Under the pieces are notes generated by a model that was not told where the DNA came from, did no database searches, and saw nothing but the letters and a program-made list of their open reading frames with translations. The translations under genes and the position numbers were made by a program. Positions 1,906 to 63,359 of a DNA stretch of 64,000 nt are shown here, piece by piece (position 1 is the stretch's first letter; each line of letters starts with the position of its first letter). Source of the stretch: Deroplatys truncata (Eukaryota > Arthropoda > Insecta > Mantodea > Mantidae); assembly GCA_030765065.1 (NCBI GenBank), contig CM060990.1, forward strand, positions 414,789,198-414,853,197. The letters run 5' to 3'.

Positions 1906-2021
1906 ATCTATCTCGACTTGTATTCAGGGCGTTTAATGATTCCTCATTTCAGACCTGTATGTATTCTTTATTAGATGCATTAATAATAATACCATGAAGC
2001 CTTAAATTAAATGTCCTTTCA

Positions 2022-2273: not shown

Positions 2274-2414
2274 ACACACGCTTCATAGAGCAAGTCAATT
2301 TTCGAGATTAGAATCGCTTGTCTAGCAGAGGATTTATATACTTTACACAACTGAAGTTATCTATACATCAATGGAAGTATTACTAAACCTAGTGGTGCAG
2401 TTACTGCTGCAAAG

Positions 2415-27445: not shown

Positions 27446-29454
27446 GTAACTATGACCGGATACTAAAAATTTGATTTCACACCAATGATTATAGATTACA
27501 GCACGTGCTGGTGGCTGCTTCGCAGCAACAGCTGTTCCTTTGTAAGTTTAATATGGCTTTCATTGAATTCTTAGTTCTGAACATCTTTTTAATTCAGTAA
27601 CTTTTCCCTTCCTTTCTATTATAACAAAGTATTGAGGAACACAGTATGGAAATGAATGCACAATATGCAAAGCACTACAATAGTAGGAGCTCACAACAGA
27701 GACGGGATCCAACAAGTACAGCTGTTGGCGCATGGCACATACAGCGTTCACCATGCCACTACCGATGGAACATACTTCCTGGTACATCTACCGGATGTCT
27801 TATGAACAGCAAGGAAACCTGTATGGTACCGCCAACTTTTCCCATGTTAGTCGCCTTGGCACATTCAGTGGTTTCCATGCAAAATCTGACATTACACAAT
27901 TTTGGCACTTTCAGCGTTTCCCACTTCCAGTCTTCAATGAGTGTTTGCATTATATATGTGTTGGGGTTTTTAAGAAAACCTTTTCGACCGAAGATATCAG
28001 GCTGTTCACGTCATCGAAGTGGCTTCTAATCTTCAAGGCGGTGCAGGCCGTGGGCCAGGCACGTAACATCTAGCATAGTTGGGTGGAAGGAGTGTAGAAC
28101 CCTCCAACCCCCCAGCCTTCAACATGTAGGCAGCAAAAGTGAAGTGTGAATCTGCAGCAATCCACTTTTTCAATAAATTTGATTCAGGCATTGTTTTACT
28201 ATACAACAATTACAAACGATTGGAGGCGATCCGTTACGCTCCTCCTGACCTTCTATCAGCAGCATCCACACTACAGTGCCGCGTAACTGTAGTAACTTGA
28301 ACTATCTGCTGGCTATAAGTGGTGGAAATAATTTTACAATGAGTTTCAATTCGAAAATAACATTCTTCATTTCGAAAAAGAAAAAACAGCTATTTAGGTT
28401 ATTTTAGGTGCCAACTCCTCATTTAGTTTTTTTTAGGTGTAATGAAATTCGCATATTCTGCTCCAGGAAATGTGAAACGAATATATATCTTGAAATGTGT
28501 TAATTAAATAGCCAGGAAAAATATAGGTTAAAACCTAGAAATCCGGGCCCTACGTCATCACTAAACAAAATACATGATGAATCTGGAGTATCATGTCTTA
28601 ATGCCCATGTACAAATGTTAACACGATTCTCAAAATCGTTTCCATGCAGCTCTTGATGAAGAGAAATGTGATAGGGATGGAACCTATGTCGATGGAGAAT
28701 GCGCAGTATACTTGCCTGACTTATGCCACTTCCACGTGCGATTGTATGGGAACTAATTTGCGGATCTACTGCAACGGCAGCCAAAATATTAATTTCTGTC
28801 TATTCTCCAGTCACTTGTTTATTTCTGTTACGTTTTCTAGGTGTTACAACACCACTTTCACGTATTTGGTTGAAGAGGTTGATAAATAATTGCCGAGATG
28901 GTTGACATCTATTGGGATACGTTTCCGCATACACGGTACAGGAACGAACTGCATTCTTCCTACACTCTCCATACACCATGAGCATGTCGGCTTTTTCTGC
29001 ATTAGTAAACACCATTTTCCACTCACAACCTTCTACTTGAACTGTCACAAACTAACTGACCAGAAAGTCGCAATGCAATCAGTGAACAGAAAACACAATG
29101 CAAGCAAACATTACAACATTGTATACCTAGCAACTAAGCAGGTTGAATGGGACAAACAATAGTCGGGGCGGAAACCACGATTTCTCGTAAACCACTTGCA
29201 CTAGAATCCTGCAACAAAGACCGTTGACATTCTAATTTACCCTACCTTTATTCTGTTGATGTAACTAGGCATTGTTCCATTTAAAAATTGTATGTTTGCT
29301 CAAAAAATATACTTTCTCAGTATTAATCAAATCTGTTTATAGGCTAAATATACGAGCCCTGACTACCAATCAATGCTGTGAAAACTGCACATCAATAGCA
29401 CTTTCCATTTCCGAAATATTTGCGGTGCAAGTTTTAGTTGATTCATCCTGTATA

Positions 29455-29814
29455 CAGGGTGGACCATTTAAGTTGATACCGTAAAGTACCTACAAAACTA
29501 AGCTTTGTAGAAAGAAGTGTCTTGAGTAAAAGCTGCTTGATATTATAGGGGCAAGTAAATGCCATCAGTCGTGTTTTGTTTGGAGGACGTTATAATGGTC
29601 ATTTAGGGTCAATTTAAATTTTAAAATGGGAACCTACAATTAGGGTGAATTTAAATTTCCTCTAAAATGACCATTGCAATGTTTTCCAAATAAAATACGA
29701 CTAATGGCATTTACTGTCCCCCATAATGTCATGCAAATTTTATTCAATACATTTCTTTCTACAAAGCTTAGTTTTGGAGATATTGTACAGTTTTAACTTA
29801 AATGGTCTACCCTG
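29455..29814. mobile_element. ~360-bp MITE, copy 2
   Basis: Ends CAGGGTGGACCATTTAAGTT and (inverted) CAGGGTAGACCATTTAAGTT with TA on both sides. It directly abuts the right end of the DUF4817 transposon, with only TATA between them. The two halves are near mirror images around 29,635. Confidence 0.9.
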
Positions 29815-34260: not shown

Positions 34261-34937
34261 ATAATTGCAATTACCAACCCATAGACGTGCAGGACGACGC
34301 CTTAGTTTTGACAACATGTTTCCAATATTAGTATCTCAACCTCCGTTAATCCCAATATCAGTCATGACATTAAGACGTTATTTAAGGGCTTAGGAATAAG
34401 CATACACTCATCTATACTAATCATGGAACAGCACACATACACACACAGGATATAAATATTGTTAAAACAGAAATTTCTAATAAAAACATAATCAGTTCGG
34501 AAAAACACACACATACATAAGCATCATTCCCTAACCGTCATCAGTAGGAACAAAAAGCCGGTTCTGGCCCACAAAGGCAGATGCCGACAGCTGATAAGGG
34601 TAATTACATGTGTTTTAACATATGTAAACATATGTAAACACGTGTAACCAGCTAATGACCGCCGCTAATGTCAAGTCTAATGGATATGTGTGGTAATACA
34701 TATGTAAACATATGTAACCCTCTAATGATCGCCGGAGATGCCGACAGGTCCTACCCCCTCCCCCAAGCGGTCTAGTCGCGTGCCATGGCGTCCTGACTTG
34801 AGTGATTTGTTTTCTCGAGGCCTGCCGCCCCTCGACAAATTAATTAGGTAATGTTCGTCAAACTTTTTTTATGACTACTAATGCCCTTGATTAATTAATT
34901 GTATATGAATTGAATCGAGCGCTAGTGTTAGCTTGTG

Positions 34938-35365
34938 TATAAGTAGCGCGCTCACGGGAACAGTCTGTCATGTAATGAAAACACTGCAACCTTCTTCTGA
35001 CTGAGGAAAGCTGTTGTCCATTAGCTGACAATGTTAGACGCTTTCACCACAGTAATAGACTTTTAAGTTTGCATTCCGGATCTGTTTACATACATTAGCG
35101 AACAACAACCTACTTCTGCTGATGGTAACGGTGACCACCATTAGCTGACAACGTTAGACGATTTCACCACATTAGCGAACAACAGCCCGGCATGTAATGA
35201 AAAAACCCGCAACCTACTTCTGCCTGATGGTAACGGTGACCTCCATTAGCTGACAACGTTAGACACTTTCACCACATTAGCGTACAATGTCAGTAATTGT
35301 TTACCTAAAGTCCTCTGCACAACTCTCACCACTTCAGGTTTTAGCGAGGAAATGATATAAAAAGC
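34938..35365 (+). promoter_or_regulatory. TATA-like motifs in left arm (inward-facing)
   Basis: TATAAG at 34,938 is followed 22 bases later by ACAGTC, an initiator-like string. TATAAAAAG at 35,357-35,365 is the stronger match. Both are conserved in the right arm (mirror at 52,020-52,026 and 51,605-51,613). No ORF follows, so any transcript would be non-coding. Confidence 0.25.
35018..35300 (+). repeat. Three 105-120-bp repeats, left arm
   Basis: CCATTAGCTGACAAYGTTAGACG..TTTCACCACATTAGCG recurs at 35,018, 35,138 and 35,243. Mirror copies are at about 51,680-51,960. Confidence 0.8.
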
Positions 35366-35544
35366 AGCAGCTTCTCCAATGAGTTCCAAGTTGACCGAGA
35401 TGGCTGGGGTCGAATCCTAGGAGTGATTACAGATTCAGCTTCTAATAACTCAGAGAGTAATTACGATAAAGACGTCAAATAGAGTTTATTACATTAATGT
35501 CATTAGGTAGTTTCTTGTGAATGTATACTTGGGTACATGGTGTC

Positions 35545-37260
35545 CAAGGTTCGAATACCGATAAAATGTAATTTAATTATAAATTTAATAACTCCTAAAC
35601 TAATTAAGATAAAGACGCCAAATAAACTTTATTACGTTTATGTTATCAGATAGTATCTTGTGGATGTATATTTGGGTACCCGGTGTTCTGGGTTCAATCC
35701 TTAATTTTTTAAATCGTCATTATCTCAGAAACTAAGAGAGGTAGAGGAGTGTACCAAAGCATGATTGATAGCTCCTATGATGGGTAATTAATACTGTATA
35801 TATTTTCAATCAGTTGTCCTTATTTCGAATCCCGATCTTTCAATCGCTTACTTATTTTTTTCTCTATACTCTAGAATATATCACTTAGATTGATGCTGTA
35901 ACTGCATACAGCACCTTTAAACATATCAAACTAATATTGTAAATAATTTTGTTTCTGGTGTCCAGGTTCGAATACCGATAAAATGTAATTTAATTATAAA
36001 TCTAATAACTCCTAAACTAATTAAGATAAAGAAGCCAAATAAACTTTATTGCGTTTACGTTATTAGGTAGTATCCTGTGGATGTATATTTGGGTACAGGG
36101 TGTTCTGGGTTCAATCCTTAATTTTTTAAATCGTTACTATCTAGGAAATTAAGAAAGCTAGGGGGATGGACCAAAGCATGATTGATAGCTTCTGTGATGG
36201 GTAATTAATACTGTATATAATTTTCAATCAGTTGTCCTTATTTCGAATCCCGATCTTTCAATCACTTACTTATTTTTTCTCTATACTCTAGAATATATCA
36301 CTTAGATTGATGCTGTAACTGTATACAGCACCTTTAAAGATATCAAACTAATATTGTAAATAATTTTGTTTCTGGTGTCCAGGGTAAGAATACCGATAAA
36401 ATGTAATTTAATTATAAATTTAATAACTCCTAAACTAATTAAGATAAAGTCGCCAAATAAACTTTATTGCGTTTACGTTATTAGATAGTATCTTGTGGAT
36501 GTGTAATTAGATACCTGACGTTCTGGGTTCGATCCTGTTTTTTTAAATCACCATTATCTCGGAAACTAAGAAAGCTAGAGGCATGGACCAAAGCATGATT
36601 GATAGCTCCTATGATGGGTAATTAATACTGTATATAATTTTCAATCAGTTTTTCTTATTTCAAATCCCGATCTTTCAATCACTTACTTATTTTATTCTCT
36701 ATACTCTAGAATATATCACTTAGATTGATGCTGTAACTGCATACAGCACCTTTAAACATATCAAACTAATATTGTAAATAATTTTGTTTCTGGTATCCAG
36801 GGTTCGAATTCCGATAAAATGTAATTTAATTATAAATTTAATAACTCCTAAACTAATTAAGATAAAGAAGCCAAATAAACTTTATTGCGTTTAAGTTATT
36901 AGGTAGTATCTTGTGAATGTGTAATTAGATACCTGACGTTTTGGGTTCGATCATAATGTTTAAATCACCATTATCTCAGAAACTAAGAGAGGTAGAGGAG
37001 TGGACTAAAGCATGATTGATAAGTTATATACTGGGTGATTAACACTGCATATAATTGCCAATCAGTTGTGCTTGATTCGATTCCCCATCTTTTAATGACT
37101 TCCTTAATTTTCCTCTGTACACTAGAATATATTACTTAGATAGATCATGTACCTGCATACAGCTTTGTTTAACATGTTGAGCTAATATCATAAATTATTT
37201 TGTTCTTGGTGTTCTGGGTTCGAATACCGATTCAATGAAATTTATTTAGAAATTTAATAA
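35545..37260 (+). repeat. 418-bp higher-order repeat, four units, left arm
   Basis: TTCGAATACCGATAAAATG recurs near 35,550, 35,968, 36,386, 36,804 and 37,220. Each unit contains three related subunits of about 139 bp, each starting with a TTCGAAT.CC- or GGTTC.ATCC-like string followed by a shared ..TAACTC..AAACTAA..AAGATA.. pattern. Confidence 0.85.
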
Positions 37261-38089
37261 CGCGTAATCTAATTTAGATAGACATGTCAAGGTAAACGCA
37301 AACAGAGTATCTATTCCTTAAATATCGTTATCATGACAAATATTACTTTAAAGTACTCAGATCGAATCCCAAAGGGATGATTTCATATATCTTCAAGCCT
37401 AGGGATCATATCAGATTCTAATAAAGATTAAATGCTTGATGCTGATGCGGGGGAGCTAAAATACATTTATTAAAAGTATTACCCGGTTCGATTTAGAAGC
37501 TAAGAATCTGTGTAACAATAGAAAAATTGCTTTTCTCGTGATTGTAGTGAAATGTAATGGGCTTTCTGTGAGAAGGTGGAAAGGAAGAATTGAAAAGGGA
37601 ATGAAAACATGAGATAATGTAGTATATACATACATTTAACTAAATAAGGAGGAAAATCTTCTCGTTACCTTTTAAGCTTTTACTTTAAGTATTGTGATAA
37701 TACAGATGGAATTAACCTTTATACAATAGGTGGTGGTGGTGGTCGTTGTAGGCTTTGAATTTGAAATATATGTCTGAATGAGCGTGGGAGAATGCTTCCA
37801 TTGCTGGTGTGACAGCATAAGCAGGTAGTTATGAGACGAGTTTAAACGTGTTTGATGCTGTCAGACATCATGTCTCTAGGTGTGACGTCATAAACATCCT
37901 GCTTCTGGGCGTGAGATTATATGGCTGAGATTAATACACGTTGAGTGATCATATACAGCTGGTTATGGACCGAGTTTATGATTGATCTAAAAGGTTCGTG
38001 CTCCCTCAAAAATTATGTTATAAGGGAAAGGATGCTCTCCTGAAACATTAGGTCTCTAGACAGAAATTTTTCACAGAGACGGAGACGTC

Positions 38090-38690
38090 AGGATAGATGA
38101 GTGCATCTTATACATGAGAGAGGTAGAGGAATATGAGGAGAAGTGCTAGGCTAGTCAGGGTTTGAGGTGTGGAATATGCGTTTATATGGGAAAGATAGGG
38201 GAAACGTGTACAGATAATAGGCCAGACAGATGCTGAAGGACGGTAATATAGGCTTATACGGGAGAGATAGGGAAATACAAGGAGGGGTGCTAGACTAGAC
38301 CGATGCAGAAGGAGGAGAGGATACGCTTTATACGGAAGAGATAGGGAATACGAAGAGAGGTACTAGAAGGGTAGAATATAGCGTTTTTATATAGGAGAGC
38401 TAGCAAACCGAGGAGAGGTATTAGGCGGGAAGGCTTGAATGACAGAGTATGCGTTTATATGGAGAGACGAGGAAAACGAAGGTAGGTGCTAGGTTGAGAG
38501 AGTCTTCAAGGAGGAAAATGCATTTATATGAGAGCGTTAGGGAATACGATTAGAGGTGCTAGTCTAGAGAGGGTTGAGGAGTAGAGTATATGTTTATATG
38601 GGAGAAATATGGAAAACGGTAGAGATACAAGGGTAGACAGTGGTTGAAGGAGTAGGAATGTAGGTTTATACGGTAATGTAGAGAGTAATT
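38090..38690 (+). repeat. ~70-bp minisatellite, about eight units, left arm
   Basis: GCGTTTATATGGGAGAGATAG..AATACG.AGAGAGGTGCTAG recurs with 58-79-base spacing. Mirrored at 47,900-48,480 in the right arm. Confidence 0.75.
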
Positions 38691-39119
38691 CGATTATAAA
38701 ACTTTCCTCATCCAGCATTACAACACTTTTATATACTTATTTTCTAAACCTTACAAACTTTATATATATGTTAAACACTAGTGCGCGAAACGGGGAGGGA
38801 CAAACTGTATATCAGGACGACGGAGGGAATTGCGATCAATGCATAGCAGGGGGAAAGAATACTCTCTTGAAACATTAGTCATCTAGACACCTATTGTTCA
38901 CGGAGCCCGTAGACGTCAGGTTGAATGGGATAGACCACAAGTTCAAATCCTTAAGGGTATGGACCACCGCCTTTTGCCCGTCATGTATACTAAACCATCC
39001 TAACAGCGCAACATTACGTTACAACGACACGTAACCAGAACATGGCGAGTGCGAGCATGGAAAAAAGGATGCTCTCTGGGAACATTCGTGAAAAAGGATG
39101 CTCTCTGGAAACACTAGTC

Positions 39120-39395
39120 ATCCACACAACGGATTGTCCCTAACATTTCCAGATTTCGGACCGTTCAACATCGTGACGCGCTCCTGTCATCTACATTTCA
39201 ACGAAATTTTACCTCCTGAATTAAAGTTTGGTGCTTTGTATAGAACTGCACAACTTGCATTACGCTGCGTGTCCCTAGCGTTTCCAGCTCCTGAATCGTT
39301 CCAGCCAGTGGAATGCTTCTACCATCTTCATGTCAACGATCTGTTACTCTGAATTAAAGTTTGGTGATCTGTATAGACCTGTACAACATGCATTA
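39120..39395 (+). repeat. Two 135-bp repeats, left arm
   Basis: Strings such as CATTTCCAGATTTCGGACCGTTC and CTGAATTAAAGTTTGGTG recur after 135 bases. The 84-codon frame here is a translation of this repeat. The same repeat forms the long array at 61.2-62.5 kb. Confidence 0.8.
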
Positions 39396-42300
39396 CGCTA
39401 TGTAACAGACTCATCACGCTATGTAACAACATGATCACGCTATGTAACAACCTGATCACGCTATGTAACAACATGATCACGCTATGTAACAACATGATCA
39501 CGCAATGTAACAACATGATCACGCTATGTAACAACATGATCACGCTATGTAACAACCTGATCACACTATGTAACAACATGATCACGCTATGTAACAACCT
39601 GATCATGCTATGTAACAACCTGATCACGCTATGTAACAACATGATCACGCTATGTAACAACCTGATCACGCTATGTAACAACCTGATCACGCTATGTAAC
39701 AACATGATCGCGCTATGTAACAACCTGATCACGCTATGTAACAACATGTTCACGCTATGTAACAACCTGATCACGCAATGTAACAACCTTATCACGCTAT
39801 GTAACAACCTGATCACGCAATGTAACAACCTGATCACGCTATGTAACAACCTGATCACGATATGTAACAACATGATCACGCTATGTAACAACCTGAGCAC
39901 GCTATGTAACAACATGATCACGCTATGTAACAACATGATCACGCTATGTAACAACCTTATCACGCTATGTAACAAGATGCTCACGCTATGTAACAACCTG
40001 ATCACACTACGTAACAACATGATCACACTATGTAACAACCTGATCACGCTATGTAACAACATGATCACGCTATGTAACAACCTGTTCACCCAATGTAACA
40101 ACATGATCACGCTATGTAACAACATGATAACGCTATGTATCAACATGAACACGCTATGTAACAACCTGATCACGTTATGTAACAACATCATCACGCTATG
40201 TAACAACCCGATCACATTATGTAACAACATGATCACGTTATGTAACAGCCTGATCACGCTATGTAGCAACATGATCACGCCATGTAACAACATGATCACG
40301 CTATGTAACAACATGATCACGCTATGTAACAACATGATCACGCTTTGTAACAACCTGATCACGTTATGTAACAACATCATCACGCTATGTAACAACCCGA
40401 TCACATTATGTAACAACATGATCACGTTATGTAACAGCCTGATCACGCTATGTAGCAACATGATCACGCCATGTAACAACATGATCACGCTATGTAACAA
40501 CATGATCACGCTATGTAACAACATGATCACGCTTTGTAACAACCTGATCACGCTATGTAACAACATGATCACGCTATGTAACAACATGAATGCGCTATGT
40601 AACAACCTGATTACGCTATGTGACAACATGATCACGCTATGTAACAACATGATCACATTATGTAACAACCTGATCACGCTATGTAACAACCTGATCACGC
40701 AATGTAACAACATGATCACGCTATGTAACAACATGATCACGCTATATAACAGCATAATCACGCTATGTAACAACATGATCACGCTATGTAACAACCTGAT
40801 CACGCTATGTAACAACATGATCACGCTATGTAACAACATGATCACGCTATGTAACAACATGAACACGCTATGTAACAACCCGATCACGCAATGTAACAAC
40901 ATGATCACGCTATGTAAAAACCTGATCACGCTATGTAGCAACATGATCACGCCATGTAACAACCTGATCACGCTATAAAACAACCTGATCACGCTATGTA
41001 ACAACCTGATTACGCTATGTAACAACCTGATCACGCTATGTAACAACATGATCACGCTATGTAATAACATGATCACGCTATGTAACAACTTGATCACGCT
41101 ATGTAACAACATGATCGCGCTATGTAATAACCTGATCACGCTATGTAACAACATGATCACGCTATGTAACAACATGATCACGCTATGTAAAACCTGATCA
41201 CGCTATGTATCAAGATGATCACGCTATGTAGCAAACCTGATCACACTATGTAACAACATGACCACACTATGTAACAAAATGATCACGCTATGTAACAACA
41301 TGATCGCGCTATGTAACAACCTGATCACGCTATGTAACAACCTGATCATACTATGTAACAACATGATCACGCTATGTAACAACCTGATCACACTATGTAA
41401 CAACATGATCACGCTATGTAACAACCTGATCACGCTATGTAATAACCTGATCACGCTATGTAACAACTTGATCACGCTATGTAACAACATGAGCACGCTA
41501 TGTAACAACATGATTACGCTATGTAACAACCTGATCAAGCTATGTAACAACCTGATCACGCTATGTAACAACCTGATTACGCTATGTAACAACCTCATCA
41601 CGCTATGTAACAACCTGATCACGCTATGTAACAACATGATCACGCTATGTAACAACCTGATCACGCTATGTAACAACATGATCACGCTATGTAACAACAT
41701 GATCACATTATGTAACAACCTGATCACGCTATGTAACAACCTGATCACGCAATGTAACAACATGATCACGCTATGTAACAACGTGATCACGAAATGTAAC
41801 AACATGATCACGCTATGTAACAACCAGAGCACGCTATGTAACAACATGATCACGCTATGTAACAACATGATCACGCTATGTAACAACCTGATCACGCTAT
41901 GTAACAAGATGATCACGCTATGTAACAACCTGATCACACTATGTAACAAAATGATCACACTATGTAACAACATGATCACGCTATGTAACAACATGATCGC
42001 GCTATGTAACAACCTGATCACGCTATGTAACAACATGATCACGCTATGTAACAACATGATCTCGCTATGTAACAACCTGATCACGCTATGTAACAACATG
42101 ATCACGCTATGTAACATCCTGATCACGCTATGTAACAACCTGATCACGCTATGTAACAACATGATCACTCCATGTAACAAGATGATCACGCCATGTAACA
42201 ACCTGATCACGCCATGTAACAACATGATCACTCTATGTAACAATATGATCACGCCATGTAAACATCTGATCACTCTATGTAACAACATGATCACGCTATG

Positions 42301-44735
42301 TAACAACCCGATCAAGCTATGTAACAACATGATCACGCTATGTAACAACCTGATCACGCTATGTAACAACATGATCACGCTATGTAACAACATGATCACG
42401 CTATGTAACAACATGAACACGCTATGTAACAACCTGATCACGCTATGTAACAATATGATCACGATATGTAGAAACCTGATCACGCTATGTAACAACCTGA
42501 TCACTCTATGTAACAACAAGTTCACGCTATGGAACAACCTGATCACGTTATGTAACAACCTGATCACGCTATGTAACAACCCGATCACGCAATGTAACAA
42601 CATGATCATTCTATGTTTCAACCTGATCACGCTATGTAGCAACATGATCACGCCATGTAACAACATGATCACGCTATGTAACAACATGATCACGCTATGT
42701 AACAACCTGATCACGCTATGTAATAACTTGATCACGCTATGTAACAACATGATCGCGCTATGTAATAATCTGATCACGCTATGTGACAACATGATCTCGC
42801 TATGTAGCAACATGATCACGCCATGTAACAACATGATCACGCTATGTAACAACATGATCACGCTATGTAACATGATCACGCTATGTAACAACATGATCAC
42901 GCTATGTAACAACCTGAGAACGCTATGTAACAACATGATCACGCTATGTAACAACATGATCACGCTATGTAACAACCTGAGCACGCTATGTAACAACATG
43001 ATCGCGCTATGTAACAACCTGATCACGCTATGTAACAACATGATCACGCTATGTAACAACATGATCTCGCTATGTAACAACCTGATCACGCTATGTAACA
43101 ACATGATCACGCTATGTAACAAACTGATCACGCTATGTAACAAATTGATCACGATATGTAACAACATGATCACGCTATGTAACAACCTGATCACGCTATG
43201 TAACAACATGATCACGCCATGTAACAAGATGATCACGCCATGTAACAACCTGATCACGCCATGTAACAACATGATCACTCTATGTAACAATATGATCACG
43301 CCATGTAAACATCTCATCACTCTATGTAACAACCTGATCACGCTATGTAACAACATGATCACGCTATGTATCAACATGATCACGCTATGTAACAACATGA
43401 ACACGCTATGTAACAACCTGATCACGCTGTGTAACAATATGATCACGATATGTAAAAACCTGATCACGCTATGTAACAACCTGATCACGCTATGTAACAA
43501 CATGTTCACGCTATGGAACAACCTGATCACGCTATGTAACAACCTGATCACGCTATGTAACAACCCGATCACGCAATGTAACAACATGATCACGCTATGT
43601 TTCAACCTGATCACGCTATGTAGCAACATGATCACGCCATGTAACATGATCACGCTATGTAACAACATGATCACGCTATGTAACAACATGATCACGCTAT
43701 GTAACAACATGATCACGCTATGTAACAACCTGATCACGCTATGTAACAACTTGATCACGCTATGTAACAACATGATCGCGCTATGTAATAATCTGATCAC
43801 GCTATGTAACAACATGATCACGCTATGTAGCAACATGATCACAATATGTAACAACCTGATCACGATATGTAACAACCTGATCTCGCAATGTAACAACATG
43901 ATAACGCTATGTAACAACATGATCACGCTATGTAACAACATGATCACGCTATGTAACAACCTGAGAACGCTATGTAACAACATGAACACGCTATGTAACA
44001 GCATGATCACGCTATGTAACAACCTGATCACGATATGTAACAAAATGATCACGCTATGTGGCAACCTGATCACACTATGTAACAACATGACCACATTATG
44101 TAACAACATGACCACGCTATGTAACAACCTGATCACGCTATGTAACAACATGATCACGCTATGTAACAACATAAACATGCTATGTAACAACCTGATCACG
44201 CTATGTAACAACATGATCACGCTATGTAACAACCTGAGCACGCTATGTAACCACCTGATCACGCTATGTAACAACATGTTCACGCTATGTAACAACCTGA
44301 TCACGCTATGTAACAACCTGATCACGCTTTGTAACAACATGATCACGCTATGTAACAAGCCGATCACGCTATGTAACAACATGATCACGCTATGTAACAA
44401 CCTGATCACGCTATGTAGCAACATGACCACGCCATGTAACAACATGATCACGCTATGTAACAACATGATCACGCTATGTAACAACAGGATCGCGCTATGT
44501 AACAACACTATCACGCTATGTAACAACATGATAACGCTATGTAACAACCTGATCACGATATATAACAACATGATCACGCTATGTAACAACATGATCACGC
44601 TATGTAACAACCTGATCTCGCTATGTAGCAACATGATCACGCTATGTAACAACACGATCACTCTATGTAACAACATGATCACGCTATGTAACAAACTGAT
44701 CACGCTATGTAACAACATGATCACGCTATGTAAAT
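39396..44735 (+). repeat. 21-bp satellite, left array, about 254 units
   Basis: Unit ATGATCACGCTATGTAACAAC or its CTG variant, repeated for 5.3 kb with scattered substitutions. 21 is divisible by three and the unit lacks stops in one frame on each strand. Hence the very long frames: plus 39,431-40,978 and 41,258-44,737; minus 41,181-39,328 and 44,775-41,224. Blocks are duplicated: a 168-bp shift around 40,171/40,339, and a ~1.05-kb shift around 42,160/43,205. I judge it non-coding. Confidence 0.95.
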
Positions 44736-45096
44736 AGGGAGGACCATTTAAGTTGAGGCTATACAATATATCCAAAACTAAGCGTTGCAGAAAGAACTGT
44801 CTTTAATAAAACTGGCTTGATATTATGGCGAAAGTAGATGCAGCTAGTCGTGTTTTGTTTGGAGGACGTTGTGATGGTCATTTCAGGGTCTTTTGTAAAT
44901 GGAACCCTAATTGTAGGTTACCATTTAAAAAAAAATAAGTTCACCCAAAATGACCCTCATAACGTCCTCCAAACAAAACACGACTAGCGGCATTTACTTT
45001 CGTCATAATATCAAGCAAGTTTTGTTAAAGACATTTCATTTTACAACGCTTAGTGTTGGATATATTGTATAGCCTCAACTTAAATGGTCGTCCCTA
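44736..45096. mobile_element. ~360-bp MITE on the axis of the palindrome, copy 3
   Basis: Ends AGGGAGGACCATTTAAGTTGAGGC and (inverted) AGGGACGACCATTTAAGTTGAGGC match the MITE copies at 21,991 and 29,455, as do TCCAAAACTAAGCGTTG and CTTGATATTATGGCG inside. Outside both ends the sequence is GCTATGTAAAT, the same edited satellite unit mirrored. Confidence 0.9.
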
Positions 45097-47182
45097 TTTA
45101 CATAGCGTGATCATGTTGTTACATAGCGTGATCAGTTTGTTACATAGCGTTATCATGTTGCTACATAGCGTGATCATGTTGCTACATAGCGTGATCAGGT
45201 TGTTACATACCGTGATCATGTTGTTACATAGCGTGATCATGTTGTTACATAGCGTGATCATGTTACATACGTGATCAGGTTGTTACATAGCGTGATCATG
45301 TTGTTACATAGCTTGATCATGTGGTTACATAGCGTGATCGTTTGTTACATAGCGTGATCATGTTGTTACATAGCGTGTTAATGTTGTTACATGGCGTGAT
45401 CATGTTGTTACATAGCGTGATCATGTTGTTACATAGCGTGATCAGGTTGTTTCATAGCGTGAACATGTTGTTACATAGCGTGATCAGGTTGTTACATAGC
45501 GTGATCAGGTTGTTACATAGCGTGATCATGTTGTTACATAGCGTGATCAGGTTGTTACATAGCGTGTTCATGTTGTTACATAGCGTGATCGTGTTGTTAC
45601 ATAGCGTGAGCATGTTGTTACATAGCGTGATCAGGTTTTTACATAGCGTGATCATGTTGTTACATAGCGTGATCAGGTTGTTACATAGCGTGATCATGTT
45701 GTTACATAGAGTGATCAGATTGTTACATGGCGTGACCATGTTGTTACATAGAGTGATCATGTTGTTACATGGCGTGATCATGTTGTTACATAGAGTGATC
45801 AGGTTGTTACATGGCGTGATCATGTTGTTACATTGCGTGATCATGTTGTTACATAGCGTGATCAGGTTGTTACATAGCGTGATCATGTTGTTACATAGCG
45901 TGATCATGTTGTTACATAGCGTGATCAGGTTGTTACATAGCGCGATCATGTTGTTACATAGCGTGATCATGTTGTTACATAGCGTGATCATGTTGGTACA
46001 TAGCGTGATCATGTTGTTACATAGCGTGATCAGGTTGTTACATAGCGTGATCAGGTTGTTACATAGCGTGATCAGGTTGTTACATAGCGTGATCATGTTG
46101 TTACATAGCGTGATCAGGTTGTTACATAGCGTGATCATGTTGTTACATAGCGTTATCATGTTGTTACATAGCGTGATCATGTTGTTACATAGCGTGATCA
46201 TGTTGTTACATTGCGTGATCAGGTTGTTACATTGCGTGATCAAGTTGTTACATAGCGTGATCAGGTTGTTACATAGCGTGATCATCTTGTTACATAGCGT
46301 GATCATGTTGTTACATAGCGTGCTCATGTTTTTATATAGCGTGATCATGTTGTTACATAGCGTGCTCAAGTTGTTACATAGCGTGATCATGTTGTTACAT
46401 AGCGTGATCATGTTGTTACATAGCGTGATCAGGTTGTTACATAGCGTGATCAGGTTGTTACATAGCGTTATCATGTTGTTACATAGCGTGATCATGTTGT
46501 TACATAGCGTGATCATGTGGTTACATAGCATGATCATGTGGTTACATAGCGTGATCAGGTTGTTACATAGCGTAATAATTTTTTTACATAGCGTGATCAG
46601 GTTGTTACATAGCGTGATCAGGTTGTTACATAGCGTGATCAGGTTGTTACATAGCGTGATCAGGTTGTTACATAGCGTAATCATGTTGTTACATAGCGTG
46701 ATCATGTTGTCACATAGCGTGATCAGGTTGTTACATAGCGTGATCATGTTGTTACATAGCGTGATCATGTTGTTACATAGCGTGATCAGGTTGTTACATA
46801 GCGTGATCAGGTTGTTACATAGCGTGATCATGTTGTTACATAGCGTGATCAGGTTGTTACATAGCGTGTTCATGATGTTACATAGCGTGATCATCTTGTT
46901 ACATAGCGTGATCATGTTGTTACATAGCGTGCTCATGTTTTTATATAGCGTGATCATGTTGTTACATAGCGTGCTCAGGTTGTTACATAGCGTGATCATG
47001 TTGTTACATAGCGTGATCATGTTGTTACATTGCGTGATCATGTTGTTACATAGCGTGATCAGGTTGTTACATAATGTGATCATGTTGTTACATAGCGTGA
47101 TCATGTTGTTACATAGCGTGATCAGTTTGTTACATAGCGTGATCATGTTGTTACATAGCGTGATGAGTCTGTTACATAGCGT
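45097..47182 (-). repeat. 21-bp satellite, right array, about 99 units
   Basis: Same unit as the left array, inverted, 2.1 kb. Its outer edge carries the same variant (AACAGACTCATCACG) as the left outer edge, and its inner edge carries the same AACAAACTG…GTAAAT variant. A ~609-bp internal shift (29 units) repeats a TGCTCATGTTTTTATATAGCG variant (46,321 and 46,930). The 635- and 564-codon frames are repeat translations. Confidence 0.95.
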
Positions 47183-50100
47183 AATGCATGTTGCACAGGT
47201 CTATACAGATCACCAAACTTTAATTCAGAGTAACAGATCGTTGACATGAAGATGGTAGAGGCATTCCACTAGCTGGAACGATTCAGGAGCTGGAAACGCT
47301 AGGGACACGCAGCGTAATGCAAGTTGTGCAGTTCTATACAGAGCACCAAGCTTTAATTCAGGAGGTAAAATTTCGTTGAAATGTAGATGACAGGAGCGTG
47401 TCATGATGTTGAACGGTCCGAAATCTGGAAATGTTAGGGACAATCCGTTGTGTGGATGACTAGTGTTTCCAGAGAGCATCCTTTTTCACGAATGTTCCCA
47501 GAGAGCATCCTTTTTTCCATGCTCGCACTCGCCATGTTCTGGTTACGTGTCGTTGTAACGTAATGTTACGCTGTTAGGATGGTTTAGTATACATGACGGG
47601 CAAAAGGCGTGGGTCCGTACCCTTAAAGATTTGAACCTGAGGTCTATCCCATTCAACCTGATGTCTACGGGCATCGTGAACAATAGTTGTCTAGATGACT
47701 AATGTTTCAAGAGAGTATCCTTTCCCCCTGCTATGCATTGATCGCAGTTCCCTCCGTCGTCCTGATATACAGATTGTCCCTCTCCGTTTCGCGCACTAGT
47801 GTTTAACATATATATAGAGTTTGTAACGTTTAGAAAATAAGTATATAAAAGTGTTGTAATACTGAATGAGGAAAGTTTTATAATCGAATTACTCTCTACA
47901 TTACCGTATAAACCTACATTCCTACTCCTTCAACCACTGTCTACGCTTGTATCTCTACCGTTTTCCATATTTCTTCCATATAAACGTATACTCTACTCCT
48001 CAACCCTCTCTAGACTAGCACCTCTCATCGTATTCCCTAACGCTCTCATATAAATGCATTTTCCTCCTTGAAGACTCTCTCAACCTAGCACCTACCTTCG
48101 TTTTCCTCGTCTCTCCATATAAACGCTACTCTGTCATTCAAACCTTCCTGCCTAATACCTCTCCTCGGTTTGCTAGCTCTCCTATATAAAAACGCTATAT
48201 TCTACCCTTCTAGTACCTCTCCTCGTATTCCCTATCTCTTCCGTATAAAGCGTATCCTCTCCTCCTTCTGCATCAGTCTAGTCTAGCACCCCTCCTTGTA
48301 TTTCCCTATCTCTCCCGTATAAGCCTATATTCCCGTCCTTCAGCATCTGTCTGGCCTATTATCTGTACACGTTTCCCCTATCTTTCCCATATAAACGCAT
48401 ATTCCACACCTCAAACCCTGACTAGCCTAGCACTTCTCCTCATATTCCTCTACCTCTCTCATATATAAGATGCACTCATCTATCCTGACGTCTCCGTCTC
48501 TGTGAACAATTTCTGTCTAGAGACCTAATGTTTCAGGAGAGCATCCTTTCCCTTATAACATAATTTTTGAGGGAGCACGAACCTTTTAGATCAATCATAA
48601 ACTCGCTCCATAACCCGCTGTATATGATCCCTCAACGTGTATTAATCTCAGCCATATAATCTCACGCCCAGAAGCAGGATGTTTATGACGTCACACCTAG
48701 AGACATGATTTCTGACAGCATCAATCATAACTACCTGCTTATGCTGTCACACCAGCAAGAGAAGCATTCTCCCACGCTCATTCAGACATATATTTCAAAT
48801 TCAAATCCTACAACGACCACCACCACCACCTATTGTACCAAGGTTAATTCCATCTGTATTATCACAATACTTAAAGTAAAAGCTTAAAAGGTAACGAGAA
48901 GATTTTCCTCCTTATTTAGTTAAATGTATGTATATACTACATTATGTCATGTTTTCATTCCCTTTTCAATTCTTCCTTTCCACCTTCTCACAGAAAGCCC
49001 ATTACATTTCACTACAATCACGAGAAAAGCAATTTTTCCATTGTTACACAGATTCTAAGCTTCTAAATCGAACCGGGTAATACTTTTAATAAATGTATTT
49101 TAGCTCCCTCGCATCAGCGTCAAGCATTTAATCTTTATTAGAACCTGATATGATCCCTAGGCTTGAAGATATATGAAATCATCCCTTTGGGATTCGATCT
49201 GAGTACTTTAAAGTAATATTTGTCATGGTAACGATATTTAAGGACAAGATACTCTGTTTGCGATTACCTTGACATGTCTATCTAAATTGGATTACGCGTT
49301 ATTAAATTTGTAAATAAATTTCATTGAATCGGTATTCGAACCCAGAAAACCAGGAACAAAATAATTTATGATATTAGCTCAACATGTTAAACAAAGCTGT
49401 ATGCAGGTACATCATCGATCTAAGTGATATATTCTAGTGTACAGAGGAAAATTAAGGAAGTAATTAAAAGATGGGGAATCGAATCAAGCACAACTGATTG
49501 GCAATTATATACAACATTAATCACCCAGTATAGAACTTATCAATCATACGTTGGTCCACTCTTCTACCTCTCTTAGTTTCTGAGATAATGGTGATTTATA
49601 AATTATGATCGAGCCCAGAAAGTCAGGTATCTAATTACACATCCACAAGATACTACCTAATAACATAAACGCAATAAAGTTTATTTGGCGTCTTTATCTT
49701 AATTAGTTTAGGAGTTGTTAAATTTATAATTAAATTACATTTTATCGGTATTCGAACCTAGGAAACCAGAAACGAAATTATTTACAACATTAGTTTGATA
49801 TGTTTAAAGGTGCTGTATGCAGTTACAGCATCAATCTAAGTGATATATTCTAGAGTATGGAGAAAAATAAGTAAGTGATGGAAAGATCGGGATTCGAAAT
49901 AAGGACAATTGATTGAAAATTATATACAGTATTAATTACCCATAATAGGAGCTATCAATCATGCTTTGGTCCACTCCTCTACCTCTCTTAGTTTCTGAGA
50001 TAATGACGATTTAAAAAATTCAGGATTGAACCCAGAACATCAGGTACCCAAATATACATCCACGAGATACTACCTAATAACATAAACGCAATAAAGTTTA

Positions 50101-52423
50101 TTTGGCGTCTTTATCTTAATTAGTTTAGGATATTAAATGTATAATTAAATTACATTTTATCGGTATTCGAACCCTGGACACCAGAAACAAAATTATTTAC
50201 AATATTAGTTTGATATGTTTAAAGGTGCTGTATGCATTTACAGCATCAATCTAAGTGATATATTCTAGAGTATAGAGAATAAAATAAGTGATACAAAAAT
50301 CGGGATTCGAAATAAGAAAAACTGATTGAAAATTATATACAGTATTAATTACCCATCATAGGAGCTATCAATTATGCTTTGGTCCATCCCTCTAGCTTTC
50401 TTAGTTTCCGAGATAATGGTGATTTAAAAATTAGGATCGAACCCAGAAGGTCAGGTATCTAATTACACATCCACAAGTAAGTACCTAATAACATAAACGC
50501 AATAAAGTTTATTTGGCAACTTTATCTTAATTAGTTTAGGAGTTATTAAATTTATAATTAAATTACATTTTATCGGTATTCGAACCCTTAACACCAGAAA
50601 CAAAATTATTTACAATATTAGTTTGATATGCTTAAAGGTGCTGTATGCAGTTACAGCATCAATCTAAGTGATATCTTCTAGAGTATAGAGAAAAATAAGT
50701 AAGTGATTGAAAGATCGGGATTCGAAATAAAAAAACCTGATTGAAAATTATATACAGTATTAATTACCCATCATAGGAGCTATCAATTATGCTTTGGTTC
50801 ATTCCTCTAGCTTTCTTAGTTTCCTAGATAATGACGATTTAAAAAATTAAGGATTAACCCAGAACACCCGGTACCCAAGTATACATTCACGAGCTACTAG
50901 CTAATAACATAAACGCAATAAAGTTTATTTGGCGTCTTTATCTTAATTAGTTTAGGAGTTATAAAATTTATAATTAAATTACATTTTATCGGTATTCGAA
51001 CCCTGGACACCAGAAACAAAATTATTTACAATATTAGTTTGATATGTTTAAGGGTGCTGTATGCAGTTACGGCATCAATCAAAGTGATATATTCTAGAGT
51101 ATAGAGAAAAAAATAAGTAAGTGATTGAAAGATCGGGATTCGAAATAAGGACAACTGATTGAAAATTATATACAGTATTAATTATTCATCATAGGGGCTA
51201 TCAATCATGCTTTGGTCCACTCCTCTGCCTCTCTTAGTTTCTGAGATAATGACGATTTAAGAAATTAAGGATTGAACTCAGAACACCTGGTACCCAAATA
51301 TACATCCACAAGATACTATCTAATAACATAAACGCAATAAAGTTTATTTGGCGTCTTTATCTTAATTAGTTTAGGATTTATTAAATTTATAATTAAATTA
51401 TATTTTATCGGTATTCGAACCCTGGACACCATGTACCCAAATATACATTCACAAGAAACTACCTAATGACATTAATGTAATAAACTTTATTTGACGTCTT
51501 TATCGTAATTAGTGTCTGAGTTATTAGAAGCTGAATTTGTAATCACTCCTAGGATTCGACCCCAGCCATCCCGGTCAACTTGGAACTCACTGGAGAAGTT
51601 GCTGCTTTTTATATCATTTCCTCGCTAAAACCTGAAGTGGTGAGAGTCGTGCAGAGCACTTAGGAAAACAATTACTGACATTGTACGCTAATGTGGTGAA
51701 AGCGTCTAACGTTGTCAGCTAATGGAGGTCACCGTTACCATCAGGCAGAAGTAGGTTGCGGGTTTTTTCATTACATGCCGGGCTGTTGTTCGCTAATGTG
51801 GTGAAAGCGTCTAACGTTGTCAGCTAATGGAGGTCACCGTTACCATCAGGCAGAAGTAGGTTGTTGTTCGCTAATGTATGTAAACAGATCCGGAATGCAA
51901 ACTTAAAAGTCTATTAATGTGGTGAAAGCCACATTGTCAGCTAATGGACAACAGCTTTCCTCAGACAGAAGAAGGTTGCAGTGTTTTCATTACATGACAG
52001 ACTGTTCCCGTGAGCGCGCTACTTATACACAAGCTAACACTAGCGCTCGATTCAATTCATATACAATTAATTAATCAAGGGCATTAGTAGTCATAAAAAA
52101 TGTTTGACGAGCATTACCTAATTAATTTGTCGAGGGGCGGCAGGCCGCGAGAAAACAAATCACTCAAGTCAGGACGCCACGGCACGCGACTAGACCGCTT
52201 GGGGGAGGGGGTAGGACCTGTCGGCATCTCCGGCGATCATTAGAGGGTTACATATGTCTACATATGTATTACCACACATATCCATTAGACTTGACATTAG
52301 CGGCGGTCATTAGCTGGTTACACTTGTTTACATATGTTTACATATGTTAAAACACATGTAATTACCCTTATCAGCTGTCGGCATCTGCCTTTGTGGGCCA
52401 GAACCGGATTTTTGTTCCTACTG
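47183..52423 (-). repeat. Right arm of the palindrome
   Basis: Mirror image of the left arm: 135-bp repeats (47,190-47,460), box (47,460-47,740), ~70-bp repeats (47,900-48,480), unique part, five 418-bp units, 105-120-bp repeats (51,680-51,990), TATA-like sites and terminal sequence. It is about 0.4 kb longer than the left arm, mainly because of one extra 418-bp unit. Confidence 0.85.
49320..51420 (-). repeat. 418-bp higher-order repeat, five units, right arm
   Basis: CGGTATTCGAAC recurs near 49,331, 49,750, 50,160, 50,576, 50,992 and 51,412. One more unit than the left arm, which shows independent copy-number change after the arms formed. Confidence 0.85.
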
Positions 52424-53580
52424 TCATCATTAACATCATAATCACCATCATAATCACCTATTCTAAGCCACCACCATCATTCATTATCTTCATATCCTAG
52501 ACTTAATGTACAATAAGAACAAGAAGAAGATAAGAAGTTTCTTCAAGAGCATAAAAGCTTCCAAATTCGTATAATTGCGGTACAGTGTCGACGTTCACGT
52601 ATACTAATTAAGAAGAGAGAGGTCAGAGCAGTGCTAAAGTATATGACATCGTCGTAATGAGTAGTGTTCATGTGAATCCATATACAAATATTTTATATCA
52701 TGTGCGTTTAGAGTTTCGCGGTATTGTAGGTATTCATTCAATGTTTCTCAACCATAGTCATTAAACAGTGCTTCTAGATTGATGGTAACTGATACTGCTG
52801 TAATTGTTGCAAGGAATAGTGATTACGTGAAATACATATACACATAGTCTAAATGAAATCATCGTTTATAGTTTTCTGAATTTATTGAACTTCTTTGCTT
52901 CTATACGTGTTGCAATTTATGGAATATCAAATCATATAGGTTTACAGAACATAACATAAATGCATCTTTTATTGCTTCACTTGCATTCTTTGCACCACAA
53001 TTATTATACTAATGGTATTGCCTAACCTTAATGTTCTTTTCAGATGCAAAGTTTTACTTTATTTGCTTTTATTGTGTCTATTTAACCAAATCCTTTAAAA
53101 GTCCTTTTTAATTGGAATTCCCCCCTCAAACTAGAACCAGAGATTACTGTTACAATTGCATATTATTGCACAAAGCTCATATTTGTAATACACTACGATG
53201 TGAAAGAGCCTAAAAGGCTAATATCACATAAAATACATATTTCAGCACGTAAAGTAAGGGAGAGGACAGAATATGCATGCCAATCTGAACAGTTACGAAA
53301 GATATTGAATGCAGTGAATTAATTATTTTCCTTTTACACACCCATTTCATGGAATCGTCGAGAAGATAGCTAATAGTAATTACAAAACACTATCTGTGGA
53401 TGGATTAGGTATAATAATTAGAGAAGAGAGTAAGATAATATTATGTTAATTGAACCGGGTCACACTATAAGACGGCTTTCAGACAGAGCATCTAAATAGC
53501 TCATGAAGCTCTGGAAAGTAAGCTAGCGAGAGGTTGCTTTAGAAACCGGAATCACCTAATAAATGTAATTAGGATTATTA
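52424..53580. other. AT-rich stretch, no gene recognised
   Basis: The first ~80 bases are CAT-rich. The remainder has no domain, repeat or RNA gene that I recognise. Confidence 0.5.
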
Positions 53581-59800: not shown

Positions 59801-60754
59801 CATCCATCACGCAAGCACTCTCTCTCACTCTCTACGTTACGCCAACGATTTATATAGCGGTTTACACACCTTTGCAAAAATATGTTGTTAACCCTTGAAG
59901 AGGGTAAATCTTTCCGCTACCTGGGTTTCTACACAGGCTTAATGGACGGGATTCCTGAGAAGAGATAGGGTCTAAAGCGGGTGAATAGATTTTCCCCAAG
60001 ACGCCGGAAATTACATCGAGTGAAACAAGGATAATATATTTGCATTACTATCGCTAAAATTATATTATCGTCAAGAAAGCTTATTTGTTTATTCCATTTA
60101 AACAGACTGGTGTTTCAGCATCCATATCTAAAATTAGTTGATCCAGCAACACTCCAATTGAATAAATATCAGAATTCTCTGAGAGATAACGTGACTTTTC
60201 AGATTCGAGATGTCACTGGTTCGAATCTCGGTTAGGTGATTTACCGCGCATGGCAAGCCCACTCATTAACGATCTTTATAAGCGTGAGTGTAAAATATTT
60301 TCCTACGGGGTATGGTGTATAGATCCGGTACCTAAACATTCGTTACTTGCACAATTATTGTTCCCATAACAACAATAAAAAGACGACTGTGGCAGACCCT
60401 TGCTTGTTTAGATATGCAGAGTCTAAAGCGGTATTGAATACCAGAGGGAAATCGAACTCTGAACTCAAATTAAAAATACACGGACTTTCAAAACGTGCAT
60501 TCTTCTCTTAGTAAGTATATAACATAGGAGGAGAAATCTTTTTAAACAGCCCTCCCTGCGAAAGATATTTTGAATATTCTCGATCTATGAATAGCAGTGG
60601 ATGCTGTCTGTAACCATTCGTCATTCGCACAACGATTGTTCACGGAGGCAGTAGATGTCAGGTTGGATGGAACAGACTCCAAGTTCAAATATTTAAAGGG
60701 TAGCGACCCTACCCTTTGACTGTCACGTCTCCTGGACCATCCTAAACACGTAAC

Positions 60755-61195
60755 GTAACACAGCCTAATCACGGTATGTAACAGCCTAATCACGGTATGT
60801 AACAGCCCAATCACGGTATGTAACAGCCTTAATCACGGTATGTAACAGCCCAATCACGATATGTAACAGCCTAATCACGTTATATCACAGCCTAAACACG
60901 TTATGTAACAGCCTAATCACGTTATGTGACAGCCTATTCACGGTATGTAACAACTTAATCACGGTATGCAACTGTCTAATAACTGTATGTAAGAGCCTAA
61001 TCACGGTATGTAACAGCCTAATCATGGTATGTAACAGCCCAATCGCGGTATGTAGCAGCCCATATTTAGCAGCCTAATCACTGTATGTAACAGCCTAATC
61101 ACGATATGTAACAGCCTATTCAGGGTATGTAACAGCCCAATCACGGTATGTAACAGCCTAACCACGATATGTAACAGCCTATTCAGAAATTGTAA
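60755..61195 (+). repeat. 21-bp satellite in the small foldback element, about 21 units
   Basis: Unit CCTAATCACGGTATGTAACAG, a diverged version of the giant element's CCTGATCACGCTATGTAACAA with the same length and orientation as its left array. Confidence 0.9.
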
Positions 61196-61199
61196 CAAC

Positions 61200-62480
61200 A
61201 TTCAGAAGACCACAGAACATCAACATACAGGTGACAGAGACGCGGCACGAGCTGGAACGATCCGAGATCTGGATACGTTAGGGACACCTCAGCGCAATGC
61301 ATGCTGTACAGATCTAAACCAACCACCAAACTTTCATTCAGAAGGTAACAATTCGAAGACATGAAGACGGTGGAGACGCGCAACTAGCTGGAACGATTCA
61401 GGAGATGGAAATGTTAGGGACATCCAGCGCCATGCAGGCTGTAGAGATCTATACAGACCACCAAAGTTTAATTCAGAAGGTAACAGTTCATCGAAGTGTA
61501 GATGTCAGAGACGCGCGACTGGCTGCAACGGTCCGAGAGCGGAAATGTTAGCGAGACCCAGTGCATCGTAAGCTGTTCAGATCTATACCGATCACCAAAC
61601 TTTACTTCAGAATGCCACAGATCCTCGACATACAGGTGACACAGACGAGCGACGAGCTGGAATGGTCCAGGAGCTGGAAATGTTAGGGCCACCTCAGCGC
61701 AATGCAGACTAAAAATCTAAACCAACTGCCAGACTTTACTTCAGAAGGTTACAAATCGGCGACATGAAGATGGCAGAAATGTGCGACGAGCTGGAGCGGT
61801 ACGAGATCTGGAAAAGTTAGGGAAATCCAGCGCAATAAGCTGTTCAGATCTATACAGACCACCAAACTTTAATTCAGGGGGTAACAGATCGTTGACATGA
61901 AGATGGTAGAGACGCGCGACTAGCTGGAACGGTCGAGATCTGGAAACTTTAGGAACACCCAGCCCAATGCAGACTGCAAAGATCTATACAGACCACCAAA
62001 CTTTAATTCAGAAGGTAACAGTTCATCGAAGTGTAGATGTCAGAGACGCGCGACTGGCTGCAACGGTCCGAGAGCGGAAATGTTAGCGAGACCCAGTGCA
62101 TCGTAAGCTGTTCAGATCTATACCGATCACCAAACTTTACTTCAGAATGCCACAGATCCTCGACATACAGGTGACACAGACGAGCGACGAGCTGGAATGG
62201 TCCAGGAGCTGGAAATGTTAGGGCCACCTCAGCGCAATGCAGACTAAAAATCTAAACCAACTGCCAGACTTTACTTCAGAAGGTAACAAATCGGCGACAT
62301 GAAGATGGCAGAAATGTGCGACGAGCTGGAGCGGTACGAGATCTGGAAATGTTAGGGACATCCAGTGCAATGCAAGTTGTTCAGATCTACAAAGACCATC
62401 AAACTTTAATTCAGAAGATAACAGTTCATCGAAATGTGTATGACAGAGACGCGGGACGAGCTGGAACGGTCCGAATGACT
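61200..62480 (+). repeat. 135-bp satellite, about nine units, with an exact 535-bp duplication
   Basis: GGAAATGTTAGGGACATCCAG…GATCTATACAGACCACCAAACTTTAATTCAGAAGG recurs every ~135 bases. The segment around 61,445-61,810 is repeated at 61,980-62,345, with at least 225 bases identical. 135 is 45 codons, so minus frames of 74-101 codons result; I regard these as repeat translations. Confidence 0.85.
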
Positions 62481-62866
62481 CTTGTTCCAGAGAGTATCCT
62501 TTTTCCCTGCTCGCACCCGCCATCTTCTGGTTACGTGGCGTTGTAACGTGATGTTATGCTGTTAGGACGGACCAGGAGACGTGACAGTGAAAGGGCGGGG
62601 CCCCTACCCTTTAAAGATTTGAACATGGAGTCTGTTCCATCCAACCTGACATTTACTGCCTCCGTGAACAATCGTTGCGCGGAGGACGAATGTTTCCAGA
62701 GAGCATCCTTTCACGTTGCTGTGCATAGATAGAGGTTCTCTCCGCTGTTCTCATCTAAAATATATACATAGTTGCGTGATATGAATTTATTCATTCGCTT
62801 TTAACTCCTTCGAGCGTTAGCACTCACGTATTCATTTAATTTCTTTACAGTTTTAGCATGAAGTAA

Positions 62867-63258: not shown

Positions 63259-63359
63259 GCATGACAGGATCTGGAAATTGTGTTAATCAATTTCGACAAT
63301 GGTTAATACGAACTTTGAAATATAAAGAACTTATAGCTATAAAATACATTATCCGGACA

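What the first reader, a model, noticed from the sequence alone, without database searches (positions are those of the whole stretch)
34542..52423. A 17.9-kb palindromic element made of satellites, with no genes
Seen: inverted arms of about 5 kb from CAGTAGGAACAAAAA at each end, TCAT directly outside both ends, arms about 98% alike over the outermost ~370 bp, and five nested repeat families (105-120, 418, ~70, 135 and 21 bp). Known: Foldback-type elements have long repeat-filled inverted termini, but I recognise no sequence kinship and the size and layered structure are unusual. Inference: a non-autonomous element moved as a unit by a transposase encoded elsewhere, or a dispersed palindromic satellite domain.
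Basis: partly seen in the sequence, partly recalled or inferred. Interest (0 to 1): 0.92.

Follow-up and report, generated by a model that had tools for sequence, protein, structure and literature searches.

The report
Palindromic satellite of a virus-like transposon
This 17.9-kb mirror-image DNA element belongs to a family that has the same ends as virus-like transposons called Mavericks (Polintons); it appears to have lost their genes, doubled one of their ends into a palindrome, and in several copies kept one small gene of its own, which makes it an unusual kind of genomic hitch-hiker.

Summary
The element W (34543-52422) is one full palindrome, not just two 5-kb arms. Its ends are 5'-AGTAG...CTACT-3' and the flanking repeat is 6 bp (GTCATC), not 4. 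Ten more copies sharing this end were fetched; with W, 11 of 11 have these ends and 6-bp duplications (9 exact, 2 with one mismatch). Two of the ten are Mavericks/Polintons with polymerase, integrase, capsid and ATPase genes; eight are palindromes like W. The 17 palindrome arms tested all carry sequence that Mavericks have only inside their polymerase-side end, so the palindrome is an inverted duplication of that end. In the inner single-copy blocks the two arms of a copy are sisters and 36 of 47 copy-private gaps are mirrored in both arms, so arms were alike at insertion. Six of the eight relatives carry an intact 155-aa gene sharing its C-terminus with a Maverick protein; variants older than insertion show purifying selection, variants in one arm only do not. 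W lost that gene by a mirrored deletion. Best reading: a non-autonomous Maverick satellite, probably born by snap-back replication at a central hairpin and mobilised by Mavericks. Mobilisation and snap-back are inferred, not shown.

The parts
34537..34542 (.). left target-site duplication GTCATC
34543..52422 (.). whole palindromic element W, 17,880 bp, 5'-AGTAG...CTACT-3'
34543..35391 (+). left Maverick-type terminal region: element positions 1-849 match the polymerase-side end of Maverick A (93.6%) and F (87.9%); holds imperfect ~105-bp repeats
35538..37280 (+). 417-bp repeat array, left arm, about 4.2 units
38813..38814 (.). left junction of the mirrored ~2.3-kb absence of the block that holds the small gene (Z) in relatives
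39102..39380 (+). ~135-bp repeats, left arm (extent read by eye)
39383..44733 (+). 21-bp repeat array, left arm, about 255 units
44734..45097 (.). centre: imperfect hairpin (366-base span folded, -154 kcal/mol against a shuffle mean of -31.5), related to hairpin repeats elsewhere in the window
45098..47193 (-). 21-bp repeat array, right arm, about 100 units
47763..47764 (.). right junction of the mirrored absence
49279..51431 (-). 417-bp repeat array, right arm, about 5.2 units
51578..52422 (-). right Maverick-type terminal region, again the polymerase-side type
52423..52428 (.). right target-site duplication GTCATC

Best explanation
[not shown]
Against: No transposition, replication intermediate or virion was observed. 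The empty-site search did not complete. Two of eight palindromic relatives (E, H) and W lack Z. Of 37 flank-sampled loci only 20 have the full Z frame without gap or stop; L054, L060 and L062 carry a Maverick-type C-terminus instead. Variants seen in two or more copies are 8 S/8 N (P 0.074), and variants in copies with one arm sampled are 9 S/29 N, no excess. 417-bp and 21-bp array lengths differ between arms, so arms are not perfect mirrors; two gap runs of 10 or more columns are unmirrored (KR 131, WR 17). In terminal block T1 arms are sisters in 6 of 9 copies, not in C, H and J. The central hairpin is absent from E, H and J and partial in B and K. PF03175 was found in A's polymerase ORF but not listed for F's 1332-aa ORF, although the two are 94% identical over 741 aa.
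Confidence: 0.82

Rival explanations
1. Same Maverick-derived element, but arms are kept alike by gene conversion between the two arms after insertion, not by copying during replication.
For: Sister arms and mirrored gaps would also follow from arm-to-arm conversion.
Against: Variants found in both arms of one copy only show selection (14 S/9 N, P 0.001), as expected if they predate insertion; converted post-insertion variants should look neutral, as the one-arm variants do (7 S/21 N). W stays diverged in all four blocks measured (1.8-3.6%).
Confidence: 0.13
2. A Foldback-family transposon (FB, Galileo or Tetris type) with satellite-filled inverted termini.
For: Long inverted termini with tandem repeats; in Galileo the repeat number differs between the two ends (PMC3573991 passages), and Tetris is a foldback element with internal tandem repeats (PMC4079207 passages).
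Against: 6-bp duplication instead of Galileo's 7 bp or FB's 9 bp (recalled); two partners with the same ends encode Maverick genes.
Confidence: 0.02
3. A Maverick end duplicated by chromosomal rearrangement or ectopic recombination between two Mavericks in opposite orientation, then spread.
For: Maverick-type ends are numerous in this genome (229 exact matches of one end pattern).
Against: It would explain the origin once, not copy-private mirrored gaps (36 of 47). A hairpin at the centre of six of nine palindromes (W, C, D, G whole; B, K partial) fits a fold-back point better.
Confidence: 0.12
4. Assembly artefact (inverted duplication of one read) or a satellite block with no mobility.
For: Long palindromes are hard to assemble (general knowledge).
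Against: Nine palindromes in different flanks, each bounded by an exact 6-bp duplication, with arms that differ in most copies and unequal array lengths.
Confidence: 0.01

Closest known systems
Maverick/Polinton elements
   Same: 6-bp duplication, AGT...ACT ends, TIRs of hundreds of bp, similar overall length; terminal region and a C-terminal protein segment shared with Mavericks of the same genome (published features from PMC8097293 passages).
   Different: None of the Maverick proteins matches W; whole element palindromic; both arms from the polymerase-side end; filled with satellite arrays; own small gene Z in six of eight palindromic relatives.
Foldback-type elements (FB, Galileo, Tetris)
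   Same: Long inverted termini made of tandem repeats, unequal arms.
   Different: Other duplication length, no P- or Mutator-type partner found in the two partners scanned, palindrome reaches the centre, partner is a virus-like transposon.
Snap-back defective genomes of AAV (PMC8235507, passages seen)
   Same: Self-complementary genomes made of one end of the parent, dependent on the parent's proteins.
   Different: Those are packaged by-products of a parvovirus; here the palindrome is a chromosomal lineage with a selected gene, and snap-back is inferred.
Tlr elements of Tetrahymena
   Same: Maverick relatives, once suggested to be non-autonomous Polinton derivatives (PMC4028283 passages); inverted repeats with short tandem repeats (recalled).
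   Different: Tlr carries integrase, ATPase and capsid genes.
Transpovirons and virophages
   Same: Satellites of a larger DNA virus system (listing and abstract starts only).
   Different: No homology tested; they encode several genes and are not palindromic (recalled).

Membership tests
Maverick/Polinton (autonomous) | 6-bp target-site duplication | tested here: met
   W exact; 11 of 11 copies fit, 9 exact and 2 with one mismatch; published feature (PMC8097293 passages)
Maverick/Polinton (autonomous) | AG- or AGT-type termini with long TIRs | tested here: met
   AGTAG...CTACT in 11 of 11; the full published (AGT)2 motif only in F and G, W has AGTAGG
Maverick/Polinton (autonomous) | core genes: pPolB, rve integrase, DJR capsid, ATPase, protease | tested here: not met
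   none of 20 Maverick ORFs matches W at E 1e-3; relatives A and F have them, the protease recognised only by eye in an F ORF (Pfam gave only Josephin, E 0.024, below its cut-off)
Non-autonomous derivative of a Maverick | terminal region homologous to gene-bearing Mavericks of the same genome | tested here: met
   element positions 1-849, 88-94% to A and F
Non-autonomous derivative of a Maverick | moved in trans by Maverick enzymes | not testable with these tools
   needs an experiment
Foldback/Galileo | long inverted termini with tandem repeats | tested here: met
Foldback/Galileo | 7-bp (Galileo) or 9-bp (FB, recalled) duplication | tested here: not met
   6 bp
Foldback/Galileo | partner encodes a P- or Mutator-type transposase | tested here: not met
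   no such family among the Pfam hits of 20 ORFs of partners A and F; several ORFs had no hit

The most novel reading that the evidence does not exclude
A snap-back 'defective' genome of a virus-like transposon has become a lasting lineage of its own: a palindromic satellite that is re-copied from one half in each cycle, carries its own selected gene (Z) that presumably diverts the Maverick machinery, and has spread through the genome on a scale like that of its host transposon (first-look candidates 7,141 for Z, 11,143 for the integrase).
Probability: 0.5. Interest if true: 0.92.

Novelty: new variant of a known kind. Interest (0 to 1): 0.82.

Why it matters
That Mavericks/Polintons replicate by a protein-primed, virus-like route in animals rests, to my knowledge, on their gene content. 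A palindromic satellite that keeps only one end, is made alike in both arms before insertion and carries no replication genes would be indirect evidence of that route, written in a genome. It would also be a satellite parasite of a transposon with a gene of its own, and it shows how a mobile element can seed satellite arrays at many sites. In the held library of openly licensed papers no paper carries the phrases non-autonomous or nonautonomous Polinton or Maverick (its three hits hold only 'Polinton-derived'). Searches listed no such palindromic element by title or abstract start (20 of 48, 20 of 36, 4 of 4, 8 of 8, 12 of 34 and 12 of 15 papers shown). [quoted passage not shown] Subscription papers and Repbase were not searchable.

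Tried and rejected

Rows dropped: of 48 Z sequences (11 arms plus 37 fetched of the 40 rows; the three not fetched are copies B and K, already held), 14 were left out of the selection count because of a gap or partial alignment (L029, L043, L045, L048, L049, L050, L053, L054, L058, L060, L061, L062, L063, L064); three with one stop each (L032, L040, L057) were kept. L050, L053 and L063 have in-frame 3-base losses. Of 13 end pairs among the 40 rows, W plus ten were read in full; two (C16:266115967, C16:375056291) and 14 unpaired rows were not fetched. In one search the left arm of J was not tested, and the capsid-side probe of A matched the arms over 41-59 bp; this is still TIR sequence in A, so only F gives a clean capsid-side negative.

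Full report
WHERE. The window is C16:414789198-414853197 of a 4.29-Gb genome in 818 contigs. The mobile-element proteins in it suggest an arthropod (recalled, not tested).

ANATOMY. The element runs from 34543 to 52422 (17,880 bp) with GTCATC on both sides. From the outside in, each arm has a terminal region of about 0.85 kb with imperfect ~105-bp repeats, a 417-bp array (4.2 units left, 5.2 right), a single-copy stretch with ~70-bp sub-repeats, ~135-bp repeats, and a 21-bp array (255 units left, 100 right). The centre, 44734-45097, folds as one hairpin (-154 kcal/mol for the 366-base span; 100 shuffles average -31.5) and has relatives at 22004-22318 and 29449-29807 of the window (75-78% over the long alignments). 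Their ends look like TATACAGGGTG, a mariner-type MITE by recall.

A FAMILY. The 359-bp end gave 1,821 first-look candidates in the genome, of which 40 were scored; 26 of the 40 rows form 13 facing pairs 9-25 kb apart, W included. I fetched ten further pairs (A-H, J, K). With W, 11 of 11 have AGTAG...CTACT ends and 6-bp duplications, 9 exact. A degenerate 20-base end pattern has 229 exact matches genome-wide and none for the reversed control.

TWO CLASSES WITH THE SAME ENDS. A (17,498 bp) and F (16,795 bp) have 737-779-bp TIRs at 98.6 and 99.9% identity and encode Maverick proteins: DJR capsid (PF21738, E 3.8e-108 in F), PLA2-like/PX, A32-like ATPase, rve integrase, pPolB (PF03175, E 5.6e-14 in A). 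In A the polymerase is split over three ORFs and the capsid ORF scanned covers only the second half; F has a 1332-aa polymerase ORF, 94% identical to A's first ORF over 741 aa, though PF03175 is not listed for it at E 5. The F integrase has 11,143 first-look candidates; the 150 scored are 97-100% identical and 147 have no stop. The other eight copies (B, C, D, E, G, H, J, K; 9.2-20.7 kb) are palindromes like W. Listed end pairs that enclose a listed integrase are C3:54220982-54237680, C6:19856419-19871867 and C4:205756058-205772758; the last starts with the very 20-mer of W's left end. Both lists are cut off, so no census is possible.

ONE END, TWICE. Inside the TIR the two ends of a Maverick differ. 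The 67-70 bp next to the TIR on the polymerase side of A and F is in 17 of 17 palindrome arms tested (81-94% identical), always ending at the same point; the capsid-side sequence of F is in 0 of 17. So the palindrome is two inverted copies of the polymerase-side end.

ARMS WERE ALIKE AT INSERTION. In the single-copy region 6 of 6 left/right pairs (W, B, C, D, G, K) are sisters, support 0.986-1; in blocks Q and U 6 of 6 and 7 of 7, in terminal block T1 6 of 9 (not C, H, J). Of 78 inner gap runs among these 12 arms 61 are mirrored; of 47 confined to one copy 36 are in both its arms; of the 21 runs of 10 or more columns 19 are mirrored, the exceptions being KR (131) and WR (17). Among the mirrored ones are the absence of the whole ~2.3-kb block in W and a ~0.7-kb loss in G. 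Arm divergence by block: G 0-0.6%, B 0.2-1.2%, C 0-1.3%, D 0.5-1.6%, K 0.5-2.5%, H 1.3-2.9%, W 1.8-3.6%.

A GENE IN THE ARMS. B, C, D, G, J and K carry in every arm that keeps the region (11 of 11) a 155-aa ORF, Z, with no indel or stop. W, E and H have none. Z has a CCxCGRxF...H....C motif (by eye), and its last 41 residues match the C-terminus of a Maverick protein whose open frame abuts that of the integrase (38 of 41; 12 codons differ silently, 3 not). In the genome Z has 7,141 first-look candidates; the 150 scored are 98-100% identical and 148 lack stops; 49 facing pairs among them lie 1.5-11 kb apart, median 7.3 kb. Sampled by its noncoding flank, 20 of 37 loci have the full frame without gap or stop; with the 11 arms above, 34 of 48 sequences align without gaps and were counted. 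Variants older than insertion (both arms or two or more copies): 22 silent, 17 changing, against 11.2 silent expected (0 of 5000 shuffles as extreme). Variants in one arm only: 7 and 21, against 5.9 expected; Fisher P 0.013. Variants in copies with one arm sampled: 9 and 29, against 7.8 expected. Splitting the older class: both arms of one copy only 14 and 9, P 0.001; two or more copies 8 and 8, P 0.074. The first of these speaks against conversion after insertion. Three of 37 flank-sampled loci (L054, L060, L062) have the Maverick-type C-terminus joined to the 135- and 21-bp repeats instead, perhaps relics of how the arm was built.

MECHANISM. Shown on the sample: shared ends, one-end duplication, arms alike at insertion, selected gene, many copies. 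Inferred: replication and insertion by Maverick enzymes in trans; origin by fold-back at the central hairpin (whole in W, C, D, G, partial in B and K, absent in E, H, J); renewed copying of one half in later cycles; Z as an aid to exploit the Maverick. AAV snap-back genomes are the nearest described analogue of which I saw passages (PMC8235507); palindromic defective adenovirus genomes are recalled only.

COMPARISON. Published intact vertebrate Mavericks have 6-bp duplications, TIRs of 46-1,447 bp and lengths of 12,723-24,620 bp, mean 16,862 (PMC8097293, passages). W, B, C, D, G and K fall in that length range, H (12,716) at its edge, E and J (9.2 and 9.6 kb) below it; E, H and J lack the centre. 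Galileo has 7-bp duplications and different repeat numbers in its two ends (PMC3573991, passages); Tetris is a foldback element that seeded a satellite (PMC4079207, passages).

LIMITS. Host identity, empty sites, expression and movement are untested. Copy numbers are first-look candidates or scored lower bounds. The ten relatives were picked by similarity of their ends. Selection tests treat variants as independent.

Noticed in passing
window 855-3394: Broken relic of a different, more distant Maverick (ATPase, PLA2-like/PX, penton-like by eye, and capsid pieces, 43-71% to A/F), 31 kb from the element.
   Followed up: partly
window 60635-63261: Older, decayed copy of the same palindrome near the window's right edge: 21-bp array, 134-bp repeats, and Z at 73% DNA identity with a frameshift and a 60-base gap.
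   Followed up: partly
window 22004-22318 and 29449-29807: Dispersed hairpin repeats related to the palindrome's centre.
   Followed up: partly
element ends, L009-L028: The outermost ~28 bp differ between copies (at least four types by eye) while positions 31-344 stay about 96% alike in the rows that start there; possibly exchange of ends with different Maverick lineages.
   Followed up: no
G000:C5:170599036-170619963: Four same-strand ends spaced 6,967-6,971 bases: perhaps a tandem array of ~7-kb units that each contain a Maverick-type end.
   Followed up: no
G000:C6:136709054-136709158: Two facing ends within 105 bases: a minimal element or a rearranged one.
   Followed up: no
L054, L060, L062: Loci with the palindrome's flank in which a Maverick-type C-terminus is fused to 135-/21-bp repeats instead of Z.
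   Followed up: partly
window 252-840: A separate 21-bp tandem array (CTTTTAGCGTGAGTGGGTTAC) beside the Maverick relic.
   Followed up: no
window 35538-37280: The 417-bp repeat contains several GGTTCGAATCC-like motifs that resemble tRNA B boxes (by eye); no tRNA gene was found.
   Followed up: partly
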